A stretch of DNA of 60,001 bases from Streptococcus sanguinis (GTDB taxonomy: Bacteria > Bacillota > Bacilli > Lactobacillales > Streptococcaceae), in NCBI RefSeq assembly GCF_003943655.1, contig NZ_RJMM01000013.1, forward strand, positions 1-60,001, in the 5' to 3' direction. This document shows positions 4,179 through 51,094 of the stretch, in pieces. The notes beneath the pieces are model-generated. The model had not been told where the DNA came from, ran no database searches, and worked only from the letters and a program-made list of their open reading frames with translations. How positions within the stretch are numbered: the stretch's first letter is position 1; the number at the start of each line of letters is the position of its first letter. Position numbers and translations under genes: made by a program.

Positions 4179-4206
4179 AAAGGCGGCTTTGTGCGGCCTT
4201 TTTTCT
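4179..4206 (+). terminator. Probable terminator after gapN
   Basis: The arms AAGGC and GCCTT flank a GC-rich loop and are followed by a T-rich run. The stem is short, so efficiency is uncertain. Confidence 0.5.
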
Positions 4207-4296
4207 TACCTTGATGAACTTGTAAATCTAACAAAGTTATCGAACTATTTGAAAAGGAACCAACTATTTATATTTTTAAGTGCTTATTATTTTAAA

Positions 4297-4340
4297 ATGT
4301 AAATTTACATATTGGTCTATATCTTTATGAAAATTTTCAT
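4297..4340. promoter_or_regulatory. Pair of perfect 14-base palindromes, 30 bases apart
   Basis: ATGTAAATTTACAT at 4297-4310 and ATGAAAATTTTCAT at 4327-4340 are both perfect palindromes of the form ATGWAAATTTWCAT. Their starts are exactly 30 bases apart, about three helical turns. They lie in the 386-base gap between gapN and glgB, about 150 bases upstream of the glg promoter. They look like a tandem operator; no regulator is identified. The remaining sequence of the gap up to 4492 is AT-rich with no gene I can support. Confidence 0.4.
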
Positions 4341-4492
4341 CCTCTGCTTGTTTGGGATAGCTCCTATATTTAGCGAAAAAGGAATTAAAAGATATCGATA
4401 GGCACAAAATGCAGTGGTTTCTATCTTATTTATTACTAATTTCAGCTAATGTTCGGTTCTGGTAATTTTCCGTAAGGATATTTGAAATTTAC

Positions 4493-47369: not shown

Positions 47370-47398
47370 TTGACTTTTGTGTTAGACAAGTGTAGAAT
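47370..47398 (+). promoter_or_regulatory. blaI-like promoter with overlapping repressor dyad
   Basis: TTGACT (47370-47375), a 17-base spacer and TAGAAT (47393-47398). The dyad ACA-AG-TGT (47386-47393) ends on the first T of the -10. BlaI/MecI repressors recognise TACA-NN-TGTA type sites, so autoregulation is likely. The same geometry recurs at 49484-49512. Confidence 0.6.
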
Positions 47399-47439
47399 GA
47401 AATTAGAAATAGCATTAATTTAGAAAGCGCGTGGGAACG

Positions 47440-47817
47440 ATGAAAAGATCTATTAAACGTTTGCCAGACGGGGAATTTACTATTTTAAAGGTAATTTGGC
47501 AGCTGCCTACCCCGACGACCTCTGCCCGTATCATGGAAAAGCTGGGACCAGACAATCACTGGAAGCCCCAGACTTTGCTGACAGTCTTGGCTCGCTTAAC
47601 AGAAAAGGGCTTTTTAGAAAGTGTCCGCAAGGGGCGTGAAAGGCAGTATACAGTCTTGATCTCAGAAGATGAGTATCTGGAAGTTGAGGCTTCGGATTTC
47701 TTGAAGCGTCACAGCGGCCGTTCTATGGGCGGGTTTGTCAAAACACTCTTTTCTTCTAACTCCTTTTCGGAAAATGAATTGGATGAGCTGCGTAGTTTGC
47801 TCAACCAAGGAAAGTAG
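47440..47817 (+). CDS. blaI: BlaI/MecI/CopY-family repressor
   Basis: The 125-residue protein has the winged helix typical of BlaI (LPDGEFTILKVIWQLPTPTTSARIMEKL, then NHWKPQTLLTVLARLTEKGFLESVRKGRERQYTVL) and a C-terminal dimerisation helix. BlaI proteins bind dyads in promoters and are removed after proteolysis triggered by a membrane M56 protease. That protease is encoded 15 bases downstream. The ATG at 47440 is preferred to a GTG at 47431, which forms part of the GTGGGA ribosome site. The target is probably not a beta-lactamase: none is nearby. The symbol denotes family, not function. Confidence 0.88.
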   Translation: MKRSIKRLPDGEFTILKVIWQLPTPTTSARIMEKLGPDNHWKPQTLLTVLARLTEKGFLESVRKGRERQYTVLISEDEYLEVEASDFLKRHSGRSMGGFVKTLFSSNSFSENELDELRSLLNQGK

Positions 47818-47832
47818 GATGGAGGGATAAGC

Positions 47833-49290
47833 ATGAAACAATTCCTTCTTTCTTTTCTGCTGACCAGTTTGTCAACTTCCATTTTGGTGCTTTTGCTTAG
47901 TCTGCTTTTTATGGCCTTTAAGACTAAGATTTCGGTCAGAGTGAAGTATTTTATTTGGTTTCTGATATTGCTGAGTTTTCTGTTTCCGTTCCGTCCCCAA
48001 TTTGGCTCAGGCCTGATTCGGCTGAATACAGGATCGGTAGTTCAGACAGCAGTGACTGCCACCCAGACAGGTGGAACGCAGGGCGCCTCTCAAACTGTTG
48101 AAAAGGCTGCCCAGACAAATCTGTGGGAGGCTTTTCTAAACCTGCCTTGGTTTGAAATTCTCTTTACCATCTGGCTGATTGGCTTTGTCTTTAGCATAGG
48201 AAGATACGCCTATTCTTATATTCGCTTCAGAAAGATGCTGAAGCGCTGGGGCACGGAGTTTCAGGACGAAGAAGCGATGGCTCAGCTGCGGGCTGTTCAG
48301 CAGGAGATGGGAGTTAAGGGCCGGATTCGTCTGCTCCACTATCCTATGTCCCAAAGTCCTATGCTGCTAGGTTTCAGAGATATTTTAATCGTGCTGCCAG
48401 AGTTGGACTACACAGAAGAAGAGCTGCAGCTGATTTTCAAGCATGAGCTGACTCACTATAAGCACCGCGATGTTTTAGTTAATCTTTTGGGAATTTTTGC
48501 CAAGAGTCTGCACTGGTTTAACCCGGTTGTCCGCTTTGCCTGCCGGGAAACCCAGGAAGCAGGAGAAATGTACTGTGACTACGATGTTCTGAGCAGTAGA
48601 GATACAGAGTATCGGACTTTCTACGGTGAAACGATTTTGACCATGATAGACCGCAGTAAGAAGACCCCAATTGCTCTGACGACCTGCTTTTACTCTGACA
48701 AGTTTAATCTCAAGCGGCGGATTGTTGGTATTATGGATAACCGCCTGCCTAAGAGGTTTCTGTCTGCTGCTTTTGTAGTGGCCGTTCCTCTCCTTTTGCT
48801 TTTGACTAGCTCGGTCTTTGCTCTAGAAAGTCCAGCTGCTCAACAAAGCAGACCTGTTGAAGGGCAAAAACAGTCTCAAGGGCTCAGTCAACGTCAGGCT
48901 CTAGCGTCCGTCTTAAAAGAGCTGTCTCTTTCTGAAAAAGATATTAAAGATTTACAAATTTCGCGTGAAAAAGATACCTATAACATTCGCTTCTCACACG
49001 GTCAAACAGCTCATGAAACCATTGTCAATGCTAAGGATGGAAAACTAATCCAATCCAAGCAGCATACCATTGTCGAAAAGACGGTAACGGTTGAAAAAGA
49101 AGTCAGTCCATCCTCGTCTGCTGCATCAACTCCAGCTGATAACAGCTCTACTGCAGGTACAGGAAATACGGGAGCAGCGGGCTCTACAGGGGCTAGTACA
49201 GCGACAGTTCAAACTCCGTCTCAGAACAGTTCCTCTCATACGACAGACACCGATGATTCGGAAGATGATGATGACCATGATGACGATTAA
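47833..49290 (+). CDS. BlaR1-like M56 membrane metalloprotease with PepSY-like sensor and acidic tail
   Basis: The 485-residue protein has membrane helices at about residues 5-28, 35-50, 97-120 and 318-335. The zinc protease motif HELTH (His204, Glu205, His208) lies in the cytoplasmic loop before the fourth, with GEMYCDYDVLS further on. After the last helix the outer part is not a penicillin-binding domain. It is a PepSY-like segment (SQRQALASVLKELSLSEKDIKDLQISREKDTYNIRF to NAKDGKLIQSK, about 355-420), then a Ser/Thr linker and an Asp/His-rich end (DDSEDDDDHDDD). It likely senses something other than beta-lactams; cations are one possibility (inference). Confidence 0.85.
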   Translation: MKQFLLSFLLTSLSTSILVLLLSLLFMAFKTKISVRVKYFIWFLILLSFLFPFRPQFGSGLIRLNTGSVVQTAVTATQTGGTQGASQTVEKAAQTNLWEAFLNLPWFEILFTIWLIGFVFSIGRYAYSYIRFRKMLKRWGTEFQDEEAMAQLRAVQQEMGVKGRIRLLHYPMSQSPMLLGFRDILIVLPELDYTEEELQLIFKHELTHYKHRDVLVNLLGIFAKSLHWFNPVVRFACRETQEAGEMYCDYDVLSSRDTEYRTFYGETILTMIDRSKKTPIALTTCFYSDKFNLKRRIVGIMDNRLPKRFLSAAFVVAVPLLLLLTSSVFALESPAAQQSRPVEGQKQSQGLSQRQALASVLKELSLSEKDIKDLQISREKDTYNIRFSHGQTAHETIVNAKDGKLIQSKQHTIVEKTVTVEKEVSPSSSAASTPADNSSTAGTGNTGAAGSTGASTATVQTPSQNSSSHTTDTDDSEDDDDHDDD

Positions 49291-49297
49291 ATAAAGG

Positions 49298-49344
49298 ATT
49301 CTGCCAGTTTAAGTTTCTTAAAAGCTTAGACTGGTAGAATTTTA
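49298..49344 (+). terminator. Terminator after the M56 gene
   Basis: ATTCTGCCAGT pairs with ACTGGTAGAAT, with an inner TAAG/CTTA pair, and is followed by TTTATT. It separates the regulator pair from the VTC operon, which therefore needs its own promoter. Confidence 0.8.
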
Positions 49345-49483
49345 TTATCTTCTCAAAGGGAGATTTAGAAATCCTCCAAGAGCAGTTAGTCATCAGTTTA
49401 TCTTTATTTTAGGACGATTTTGCTTACAGTTTGCATTTCGTTTCCTAATGCTAAAAAAGCTGAAAGATTATTTATCTTTTTTC

Positions 49484-49538
49484 TTGACATTCACAAACGA
49501 CAATTGTAGAATATATTTATAAACTACATTTGTAGAAT
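49484..49538 (+). promoter_or_regulatory. VTC operon promoter with two BlaI-type dyads
   Basis: TTGACA (49484-49489), a 17-base spacer and TAGAAT (49507-49512) form the promoter. ACA-AT-TGT (49500-49507) ends on the first T of the -10, exactly as in the blaI promoter. A second dyad CTACA-TT-TGTAG (49524-49535), followed by AAT, lies just downstream of the expected transcription start. Confidence 0.65.
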
Positions 49539-49634
49539 GTTTTTGAAAAATACTGCTTGGAAGGGAGAAGAAAGTAAAGCTTATCCAGACGCTTGTAGGA
49601 TGCAGAGCGGAAGCTCTATTTCTTTTAAAAGCAT

Positions 49635-49652
49635 AAACTACATTTGTAGAAT
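49635..49652 (+). promoter_or_regulatory. Third BlaI-type dyad next to the VTC ribosome site
   Basis: CTACA-TT-TGTAG (49638-49649) is embedded in a 20-base stretch identical to that around 49524. It sits 4 bases before AAAGGAG, so a bound repressor would block elongation. The 100 bases between the second and third dyads hold only a short frame from 49600 ending in the VTC start (ATGA). Confidence 0.6.
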
Positions 49653-49667
49653 CAAAGGAGAATTCAA

Positions 49668-50399
49668 ATGAAACAAAAGCAAATCCAAACAAATTTCCAA
49701 CGAATCGAAACGAAGTATATTCTTGACCGGGCAATGCTAGCTCGTCTTGAAGCTGACATGAGACCTTACCTCACCGCAGATGATTATGCGACATCAACCA
49801 TTTCCAATGTGTATTTTGATAATGATGAGTTCCAGATGATCCAGGATTCCATTGCTAGAAAAGGCGGTCGCGAAAAAATGCGGATGCGGACTTATGCTGA
49901 GCAGCCGAATGATGATAGTCAAGTTTTCTTGGAAATCAAGAAGAAACGGGATGAAGTAGGCTTTAAATACCGTTTGGTTTCGAATCCTCTCTCTGTGACC
50001 AACTATATTGTGAACGGTGTGGCAGACCATACTATTTCCGATGACCGGGTCAAGGCGGAAGTAGAGCAGTTGCAGGAGCGCTATATAGACTTGAAGCCAA
50101 AAATGGTGATTAGCTATGACCGCTACTCTATGAGAGGCTTGGAAGATAAAAAGGTACGTGTGACAGTTGATTCCAACATCCGTTATCGAGATTATGATGT
50201 AGACTTGGCTTTAGGCCGCTATGGACTGCCCTTGCTGGATGACGACAAGGTAATTATGGAAATCAAGGTTCCTGGTCAATATCCTCAGTGGTTGGCTGAT
50301 ATTCTAAATAAATACGGTCTTGAAGACCAGTCCTTCTCAAAATACGGCAATGCCTACCTGAAAACTAAAGAAAGGCTGACTCGAACAGTCAAGGCCTAA
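49668..50399 (+). CDS. VTC-domain protein (polyphosphate polymerase fold)
   Basis: The 243-residue protein has the tunnel-fold signature of VTC/CYTH-type enzymes: RIETKYIL, REKMRMRTY, VFLEIKKKRDEVGFKYR, KPKMVISYDRYSM, VRVTVDSNIRYRDYD, VIMEIKVPGQYP and FSKYGNAYL. The alternating Arg, Lys and Glu residues line the tunnel where yeast Vtc4 makes polyphosphate from ATP. Whether bacterial members synthesise polyphosphate or another phosphate polymer is not settled. It is coupled to a DUF4956 membrane protein and lies behind three BlaI-type dyads. Confidence 0.85.
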   Translation: MKQKQIQTNFQRIETKYILDRAMLARLEADMRPYLTADDYATSTISNVYFDNDEFQMIQDSIARKGGREKMRMRTYAEQPNDDSQVFLEIKKKRDEVGFKYRLVSNPLSVTNYIVNGVADHTISDDRVKAEVEQLQERYIDLKPKMVISYDRYSMRGLEDKKVRVTVDSNIRYRDYDVDLALGRYGLPLLDDDKVIMEIKVPGQYPQWLADILNKYGLEDQSFSKYGNAYLKTKERLTRTVKA

Positions 50400-50410
50400 G
50401 GAGGTAGTCT

Positions 50411-51094
50411 ATGATCAATCAGTTATTTAACAGTATCTACTCCTCTACGGAAGTCAAGATAAATCCTTTAGCATTGATTTTTTCACTAGCAACTAGTGTG
50501 GTTTTAGGAATTATCTTGGCCAAGGTCTATAAGCGCCAAACCATTTATACCAAGGAATTTGTCGTCACCCTCTCCCTTTTGCCAGCCATTATTTCCATTA
50601 TCATCTTCTTGGTTAATGGAAATCTGGGTACGAGTGTCGCCGTAGCAGGGACTTTCAGCTTGATTCGCTTCCGGTCAGCTGCAGGTGGCTCCAAGGAGCT
50701 TCTAGCCATCTTTATGGCGACGGCTATCGGGATTACAACGGGGATGGGCTTTGTAGCACTGGGAATTGTTTTTACTCTAGCTATTTCAGGCATCTGGATG
50801 CTCTTTGAAAAGATGAGCTTTACTTCAGTCAGTCCGACCAGACGTTATGTCCAGGTTCAGGTTCCAGCTGACTTTGACTACGAAGTACTCTTTGATGCTA
50901 TCTTTGAAACGACTTGTAAATCGGCTGAACTGACATCTCTCAAGTCGGCTGAAAAGAAGTCTATCAAGCTGGACTATGTTGTTGACTTGAATCCTGACAT
51001 GAGCGACAGAGAGCTCATTCAGCAGTTCCTGTTCTATGATAAGGTGCAGGACATTTCCCTTTCCAAAGCTGCTAAGAAGCGTAAAACCCTCTAA
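50411..51094 (+). CDS. DUF4956 membrane protein
   Basis: The 227-residue protein has about four membrane helices (residues about 20-38, 48-68, 70-90, 98-135) with the conserved loop GTFSLIRFRSAAGGSKELLAIFMATAIGI. A soluble C-terminal domain of about 90 residues with an alpha-beta, ACT-like look follows. DUF4956 genes commonly lie next to VTC-domain genes in bacteria; here the gap is 11 bases with AAGGAGG. A joint membrane complex that makes or exports a polymer is plausible (inference). Confidence 0.83.
   Translation: MINQLFNSIYSSTEVKINPLALIFSLATSVVLGIILAKVYKRQTIYTKEFVVTLSLLPAIISIIIFLVNGNLGTSVAVAGTFSLIRFRSAAGGSKELLAIFMATAIGITTGMGFVALGIVFTLAISGIWMLFEKMSFTSVSPTRRYVQVQVPADFDYEVLFDAIFETTCKSAELTSLKSAEKKSIKLDYVVDLNPDMSDRELIQQFLFYDKVQDISLSKAAKKRKTL

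What the first reader, a model, noticed from the sequence alone, without database searches (positions are those of the whole stretch)
47370..51094. A BlaI/M56-protease pair that probably controls a VTC-DUF4956 operon
Seen: the blaI-like promoter and the VTC promoter share the same build, TTGAC(A/T)-17-TAGAAT, with an ACA-NN-TGT dyad whose last T is the first T of the -10. Two more perfect CTACA-TT-TGTAG dyads precede the VTC gene. Known: BlaI-type repressors bind TACA-NN-TGTA dyads and are relieved by a BlaR1-type M56 protease. Inference: this is a self-contained signal-response system whose output is a VTC-fold (polyphosphate-like polymer) enzyme and a DUF4956 membrane protein, not antibiotic resistance. 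I know of no described system of this composition.
Basis: partly seen in the sequence, partly recalled or inferred. Interest (0 to 1): 0.72.

Follow-up and report, generated by a model that had tools for sequence, protein, structure and literature searches.

The report
Protease-relieved switch for a polyphosphate-type enzyme
In mouth streptococci and relatives, a repressor and a membrane protease of the kind known from antibiotic resistance appear instead to control genes for a polyphosphate-making type of enzyme and a partner membrane protein, plus a surface lipoprotein.

Summary
blaI and VTC promoters are both TTGAC(A/T)-17-TAGAAT with a KACANNTGTA dyad overlapping the -10; two more dyads precede VTC. 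The window is Streptococcus sanguinis-like. Of 247 Streptococcus genomes, the same 36 hold M56 and close BlaI; VTC follows M56 in 30. Within 350 bp of VTC an exact dyad stands in 28 of 29 counted loci, two or more in 19, versus 0 of 40 VTC upstreams from genomes lacking the pair. Two genomes of another family carry the same cassette and dyads; one genome that lost the pair has decayed dyads.
New here: a third target, a DUF3642 lipoprotein (both dyads in 21 of 23 orthologues, none in 7 homologues elsewhere); a PepSY-like domain and Asp-rich tail (33 of 33; 1 of 11 unlinked M56) outside the membrane on M56; a secreted PepSY-repeat gene in a sister clade's operon.
Binding, cleavage, signal and product are inferred. 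A new variant of BlaI/BlaR1-type control; my searches found no description.

The parts
47370..47398 (+). blaI promoter, TTGACT-17-TAGAAT
47385..47394 (+). operator-like dyad GACAAGTGTA over the blaI -10
   Evidence: an exact KACANNTGTA dyad before blaI in 34 of 36 genomes
47440..47817 (+). BlaI/MecI-type repressor (GTG at 47431 is the mechanical start), no cysteine
   Evidence: PF03965 2.8e-24; closest solved sequences: BlaI, MecI
47833..49290 (+). M56 membrane metalloprotease, HELTH at 48442-48456
   Evidence: PF05569 5.9e-48; alignment
48874..49065 (+). extracytoplasmic PepSY-like domain of M56 (residues 348-411)
   Evidence: hhalign E 3.7e-10 to secreted PepSY repeats; pLDDT about 80 for residues 350-412 and VIA Z 9.2 to YpeB C-terminal domain
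49228..49287 (+). Asp-rich C-terminal tail of M56
   Evidence: 33 of 33 full-length M56 of this type, 1 of 11 unlinked M56
49296..49342 (+). terminator-like hairpin after M56
   Evidence: a remnant stands in G070
49484..49512 (+). VTC promoter, TTGACA-17-TAGAAT
49499..49508 (+). dyad 1, GACAATTGTA, over the -10
49525..49534 (+). dyad 2, TACATTTGTA, 26 bp downstream
49604..49617 (+). short stem-loop with T-rich tail between dyads 2 and 3 (role unknown)
49639..49648 (+). dyad 3, TACATTTGTA, at -29 from the VTC start
49668..50399 (+). VTC-domain (polyphosphate polymerase-type) enzyme
   Evidence: PF09359 4.9e-48; catalytic residues kept
50411..51094 (+). DUF4956 membrane protein
   Evidence: PF16316 7.2e-16; weak MgtC likeness below cut-offs

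Best explanation
A BlaI-type repressor dimer sits on KACANNTGTA dyads over the -10 of its own promoter, over the -10 and just downstream in the VTC-DUF4956 promoter (with a third site before the ribosome-binding site), and on a two-dyad promoter of a DUF3642 lipoprotein elsewhere. The M56 protease, with a PepSY-like domain and an acidic tail outside the membrane, is the sensor. When it is triggered, the repressor is cleaved or otherwise removed, and all three units are expressed. The output is a VTC-fold enzyme with a Vtc4-type active site, probably making polyphosphate at the membrane with DUF4956 as its membrane partner, plus a surface lipoprotein. Shown by sequence: the genes, their families, the shared promoter build, co-occurrence, operator conservation and decay. 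Inferred: DNA binding, proteolytic relief, the signal (envelope or cation-related) and the product. The confidence given is for the regulatory link; that the product is polyphosphate I hold at about even odds.
For: Same 36 of 247 genomes hold M56 and close BlaI. VTC adjacent in 30 of 36 (29 plus frameshifted G184). Exact dyads: within 350 bp of VTC at least one in 28 of 29 and at least two in 19 of 29; in the whole M56-VTC gap (up to 1300 bp) at least two in 28 of 29; 0 of 40 controls, each about 350 bp. Same cassette and dyad spacing (26 bp; third at -28) in two genomes of another family, in another chromosomal setting. G070 lost BlaI/M56 and has no exact dyad left, although the trace of the M56 terminator remains. 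Lipoprotein promoter: two dyads in 21 of 23, one in 2 of 23; 0 of 7 homologues in other genomes. All five genomes with a broken M56 lack an intact VTC at this locus. This genome has two matches to this BlaI at E 1e-5 or better; the second place is not listed there and is presumably the CopY-like gene. Vtc4 K200, R264, R266, K281 and R361 align well, and E426 and K458 by a weak second segment, to residues invariant in the 9-sequence alignment.
Against: No binding or expression data. The bare dyad is at background genome-wide. CopY of streptococci uses KACANNTGTA. The MecI cleavage site Asn-Phe (recalled) aligns with Thr-Leu here. G213 and G214 lack an exact dyad at blaI. G130 has one exact dyad before VTC, and G126 has none within 350 bp of VTC (its three stand before the PepSY gene). 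G017 keeps BlaI and a full-length M56 without VTC. G035 has a frameshifted BlaI but keeps VTC and all dyads. The 40 control VTC genes are at most 61% identical to this one, so they are not close orthologues. Genomes within a clade are not independent.
Confidence: 0.8

Rival explanations
1. The dyads before VTC are cop boxes: CopY, the copper repressor, controls VTC-DUF4956, and the BlaI/M56 pair is a bystander.
For: CopY operator is KACANNTGTA, extended RNYKACANNTGTMRNY; some CopY proteins bind operators of other species (PMC7253601, passages). In G000 a gene that I read as copY, not scanned against a family library, has two TACATTTGTA boxes upstream and stands beside what reads as a copper-type ATPase.
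Against: BlaI-family homologues occur in 242 of 247 genomes, yet VTC upstreams without the close BlaI/M56 have no dyads, 0 of 40. The VTC dyads end ...TGTAGAAT and miss the last pyrimidine of the 16-base cop site; the blaI dyad misses more. In G070, dyads decayed where BlaI/M56 are lost. The dyads go with BlaI/M56 in another family.
Confidence: 0.1
2. BlaI/M56 regulate only themselves; similarity of the VTC promoter is inherited promoter sequence without operator function.
For: No binding data. The bare dyad is common by chance.
Against: Dyads with fixed spacing are kept while the sequence between them changes. The lipoprotein promoter is unlinked and has the same pair.
Confidence: 0.07
3. Regulation is as described, but the VTC enzyme makes or cuts something other than polyphosphate (for example acting on a cell-envelope polymer), as association with Pel and CotH clusters could suggest.
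For: A poly-phosphate polymerase and DUF4956 are accessory genes of streptococcal and clostridial Pel operons (PMC7112168, passages). The second VTC here is followed by a Cthe_2159 carbohydrate-binding protein gene.
Against: Vtc4 catalytic set kept; no PPK1-family gene found in this genome, so the role of polyphosphate polymerase is open.
Confidence: 0.35

Closest known systems
Staphylococcal BlaI-BlaR1 / MecI-MecR1
   Same: Repressor and M56 membrane protease side by side under a promoter with its own dyad; TACA/TGTA dyads over promoters (the staphylococcal details are recalled, in part)
   Different: No penicillin-binding sensor domain; PepSY-like domain and Asp-rich tail instead; likely targets are VTC-DUF4956 and a lipoprotein, not blaZ or mecA
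CopY/CopR copper repressors
   Same: Relatives of BlaI/MecI, KACANNTGTA operator
   Different: TIGR02698 68.8 bits against a cut-off of 121.95; no cysteine, so no CXC metal site, in 34 of 36 homologues; paired with a protease
Yeast Vtc4 / VTC complex
   Same: VTC domain with the same catalytic residues
   Different: No SPX domain in this 243-residue protein and a separate DUF4956 membrane protein; control apparently by transcription
CotH - poly-phosphate polymerase - DUF4956 accessory genes of streptococcal Pel operons (PMC7112168)
   Same: Poly-phosphate polymerase gene with a DUF4956 gene (passages)
   Different: Here no CotH or Pel genes among the neighbours listed; BlaI/M56 stand beside it

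Membership tests
BlaI/MecI repressor family | Penicillinase_R winged helix and dimerisation domain | tested here: met
   PF03965 2.8e-24, cut-off passed; MecI 1okr over residues 11-126
BlaI/MecI repressor family | binds TACA-NN-TGTA operators | not testable with these tools
   dyads present at its own and target promoters, binding not shown
BlaI/MecI repressor family | cleaved at Asn-Phe by the partner (site recalled) | tested here: inconclusive
   Thr-Leu aligns there
BlaR1/MecR1 beta-lactam sensor | M56 metalloprotease domain with HExxH | tested here: met
   PF05569 5.9e-48; HELTH
BlaR1/MecR1 beta-lactam sensor | extracellular penicillin-binding domain | tested here: not met
   no such Pfam hit; blaR1_generic 151.6 bits against cut-off 400, residues 7-334 only; PepSY-like fold there instead
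CopY/TcrY copper repressor | NCBIfam TIGR02698 above cut-off | tested here: not met
   68.8 against 121.95 bits
CopY/TcrY copper repressor | C-terminal CXC metal motif | tested here: not met
   no cysteine in the window protein; only G213 and G214 of 36 have any
PepSY domain (M56 outer part) | Pfam PepSY model hit | tested here: not met
   no PF03413 hit on the window M56 or its C-terminal piece
PepSY domain (M56 outer part) | profile and fold likeness to PepSY domains | tested here: met
   profile-profile E 3.7e-10 to PepSY repeats of the sister clade; Z 9.2 to 5boi, rmsd 2.2, 62 aligned, though a designed cystatin-like fold also reaches Z 8.0 there
VTC polyphosphate polymerase | VTC domain with Vtc4 catalytic residues | tested here: met
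   PF09359 4.9e-48; seven residues correspond, two of them (E426, K458) only in a weak segment of the alignment; R264, R266 and E426 named as inactivating sites in PMC9911596 (passages), the others recalled
VTC polyphosphate polymerase | makes polyphosphate | not testable with these tools
   none
MgtC family (for DUF4956) | MgtC models above cut-off | tested here: not met
   two homologues hit PF02308 at E about 0.1, below cut-off; NCBIfam MgtC/SapB 20.7 of 214 bits

The most novel reading that the evidence does not exclude
A distinct sensor class: M56 proteases with PepSY domains and an Asp-rich tail outside the membrane sense an envelope signal (cations, cationic peptides or an extracellular protease) and switch on polyanion synthesis (VTC) with an MgtC-like membrane protein. 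The co-regulated secreted PepSY-repeat protein of the sister clade resembles the sensor itself and would compete for its ligand, giving negative feedback. This would be a one-protein counterpart of PhoQ-type sensing in Gram-positive bacteria.
Probability: 0.2. Interest if true: 0.8.

Novelty: new variant of a known kind. Interest (0 to 1): 0.62.

Why it matters
It gives a concrete transcriptional control to a bacterial VTC-DUF4956 pair. In the open-licence library DUF4956 is named in only three papers: one on Pel operons (passages), one transcriptome table (passages) and one that I did not open. It moves BlaI/M56 signalling away from antibiotics, and it offers a defined regulon through which the natural inducer can be found and the function of bacterial VTC enzymes tested.

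Tried and rejected
CopY as owner of the dyads: considered, weakened. A conserved terminator or attenuator between dyads 2 and 3: a stem-loop is visible near -64 in sanguinis, cristatus and the second family, but my strict scan with a T-rich tail found it in 7 of the 20 upstreams tested (16 before VTC, 4 before the PepSY gene) and in none of the 11 of the sister clade; left as an observation. Whole-protein folding of M56 was poor (mean pLDDT 46; residues 350-412 about 80), and of DUF4956 too (51). Foldseek on DUF4956 gave common ferredoxin-like folds for its C-terminal part, so MgtC kinship stays a lead. Pfam PepSY was not found directly in the window M56. Literature searches, of which I saw listings unless said otherwise, showed no paper on a BlaI-VTC link.

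Rows dropped and limits of counts: the PepSY profile used 27 M56 of 36 genomes (five broken, three remote, and G184 missed by my pattern). One search counted VTC in 29 of 36, missing frameshifted G184 (three dyads within 350 bp) and G214, whose VTC lies on another contig. The 40 control upstreams were chosen down the list, not all of them. The M56 search covered 71 chosen VTC-bearing genomes, 6 of them Streptococcus; of the 67 VTC-bearing genomes outside the genus I gave it 65. Of 21 M56 places there that are not beside VTC, 11 were fetched; three not fetched (in G324, G434, G445) have frames of 646-651 aa like the one with an acidic tail, so 1 of 11 may understate that type. The lipoprotein paralogues inside the BlaI-bearing genomes were not checked for dyads. 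In one search the list of places was cut off, the counts were not.
Full report
WHAT IS THERE. The window belongs to a Streptococcus sanguinis-like genome, G000, contig 13: its VTC protein is 97-100% identical to the seven named S. sanguinis loci found. Four genes in a row on the + strand encode a BlaI/MecI-family repressor, an M56 membrane protease, a VTC-domain enzyme and a DUF4956 membrane protein. The 377-bp gap before VTC holds three exact KACANNTGTA; 20,000 dinucleotide shuffles average 0.0046.

RESULT AGAINST, STATED FIRST. The plain TACANNTGTA motif is not enriched in the genome: 27 sites against 23 of the reversed pattern. A count of bare motifs would therefore prove nothing. The extended form KACANNTGTAGAA, which joins the dyad to the -10, is enriched. 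It gives 10 hits against 4 in G000; over the 37 genomes the columns sum to 259 against 75 (summed). In G000 six of the ten lie in three promoters: blaI, VTC and one more.

CO-OCCURRENCE. In 247 Streptococcus genomes the M56 protein is found in 36. Close BlaI homologues (E below 1e-30; the next hits are near 1e-15) are found in the same 36. VTC relatives occur in 149 of 247, so most VTC genes live without this pair. VTC follows M56 in 30 of the 36: 29 by the script, plus G184 with a frameshifted VTC. In G214 the contig ends soon after M56. In G008, G017, G102, G147 and G168 VTC is gone from this place, with DUF4956 remnants in four of them.

OPERATORS. An exact dyad stands before blaI in 34 of 36 genomes; G213 and G214 lack an exact one. 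For VTC, 28 of 29 counted loci have at least one exact dyad within 350 bp, and 19 at least two. Over the whole M56-VTC gap, up to 1300 bp, 28 of 29 have at least two; in the sister clade described below most of those stand before the extra gene. G126 has none within 350 bp and G130 has only one. In the sanguinis and sinensis group the sites are at about -169/-143/-29, in cristatus about -143/-117/-29, in G056 -120/-94/-29: the 26-bp spacing and the -29 site stay while the stretch between changes length. None of 40 VTC upstream regions (about 350 bp each) from genomes without the pair has an exact dyad; those VTC proteins are at most 61% identical to this one.

TRANSFER AND LOSS. In 295 genomes of the order, 101 have VTC. 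Of 71 such genomes that I searched for M56, 19 have one. In two of them outside the genus, G342 and G403 of another family, it stands beside VTC: BlaI (70% identical to the window's), M56, VTC and DUF4956 in the same order, with dyads at -110, -84 and -28 and one before blaI, in a different chromosomal setting. In the opposite direction, G070 has a 73%-identical VTC but no M56 or close BlaI. A trace of the M56 terminator is still readable there, and what is left of a dyad is one base short. All five genomes with a broken M56 (G008, G027, G102, G147, G168) also lack an intact VTC at this locus. These are close relatives, so this is few independent events.

THIRD TARGET. At G000:C31:13828-13866 the same promoter, with two dyads 26 bp apart, precedes a 156-residue lipoprotein with a DUF3642 domain (PF12182, 8.5e-14). 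Of 23 high-identity copies (72-100%), all in genomes with this BlaI, 21 have both dyads and two (G158, G102) have one. Seven homologues of 46-51% identity from genomes without the pair have none. Four genomes that lost VTC (G008, G017, G147, G168) still keep this target with both dyads, which may explain why BlaI stays.

SISTER CLADE. In nine relatives (G006, G023, G064, G112, G122, G124, G126, G157, G215; VTC 55-57% identical) the gap holds an extra gene. It encodes a secreted-looking protein with PepSY repeats (PF03413, 2.1e-12 and 1.8e-10 for the two scanned). Dyads stand before it in all nine, and directly before VTC in eight, not in G126.

THE SENSOR. M56 has no penicillin-binding domain by Pfam or NCBIfam. 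Its outer part is not hit by Pfam PepSY, but it matches the secreted PepSY repeats in profile-profile comparison (E 3.7e-10, 27 sequences; sanguinis-type alone 5.1e-9, 13 sequences). Six control segments (three of M56, two of VTC, one of DUF4956) gave 0.026 to 0.79. The whole AlphaFold model is poor, but residues 350-412 are predicted at pLDDT about 80. They align with the YpeB C-terminal domain (Z 9.2, rmsd 2.2, 62 residues), a vibriolysin propeptide (8.7) and YpmB (7.9); a designed cystatin-like protein also reaches 8.0, so the fold alone would not settle it. G130, G213 and G214 lack the domain in the alignment. After a Ser/Thr-rich linker every full-length protein of this type ends in an acidic tail: 10 to 18 acidic residues in the last 20, in 33 of 33. 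Of 11 M56 proteins not linked to VTC, one has such a tail, and that one carries three Pfam PepSY domains. So PepSY plus acidic tail looks like a sensor type of its own.

THE OUTPUT. The VTC profile aligns with yeast Vtc4 (E 5.5e-10). Vtc4 K200, R264, R266, K281 and R361 correspond to K16, R72, R74, K91 and R152. E426 and K458 correspond to E198 and K225 in a second segment that has almost no score of its own. All seven are invariant in the 9-sequence alignment. R264/R266/E426 were used to inactivate Vtc4 (PMC9911596, passages); the role of the others I recall. No PPK1-family gene is found in this genome; PPK2 was not tested. A second VTC (C9:4732-5445) is followed by a Cthe_2159 carbohydrate-binding protein gene. 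In Pel operons of streptococci and clostridia a poly-phosphate polymerase and DUF4956 are accessory genes (PMC7112168, passages). DUF4956 has helices in its first part and a ferredoxin-like C-terminal part in a low-confidence model, and weak MgtC likeness below cut-offs.

HOW IT LIKELY WORKS. BlaI covers the -10 elements; dyad 2 and the dyad before the ribosome-binding site would strengthen the block. A signal at the PepSY/acidic outer part activates the protease, BlaI is removed, and its own operon, VTC-DUF4956 and the lipoprotein are expressed. Binding, cleavage, signal and product are inferences. The MecI cleavage site (recalled) is not conserved in letters.

KNOWN OR NEW. The parts are known families. 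PMC7253601 (passages, abstract included) warns that KACANNTGTA alone is not enough for CopY binding; the same caution holds here, and it is why co-occurrence, controls and loss were used. My searches showed no paper linking BlaI/M56 to VTC or DUF4956; the library holds open-licence papers only.

Noticed in passing
G000:C31:13344-13866 (L113): DUF3642 lipoprotein with the same two-dyad promoter; likely third member of the regulon, outside the window.
   Followed up: yes
L079 (G035) 1647-2032: BlaI is frameshifted while M56, VTC, DUF4956 and all dyads remain: a possible natural derepressed strain.
   Followed up: no
L215 (G070) 4200-4400: VTC without BlaI/M56; trace of the old M56 terminator and one shortened dyad remain upstream.
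   Followed up: partly
L272 (G405) 124-2037: Unlinked 637-aa M56 with three PepSY domains and an Asp/Tyr-rich tail in another genus; its gene neighbourhood was not worked out.
   Followed up: partly
window 49604-49617: Short stem-loop with T-rich tail near -64 before VTC; stems of other sequence stand near the same place in some relatives.
   Followed up: partly
G000:C9:4732-6724 (L214): Second VTC gene followed by a Cthe_2159 carbohydrate-binding protein gene; its promoter was not examined.
   Followed up: no
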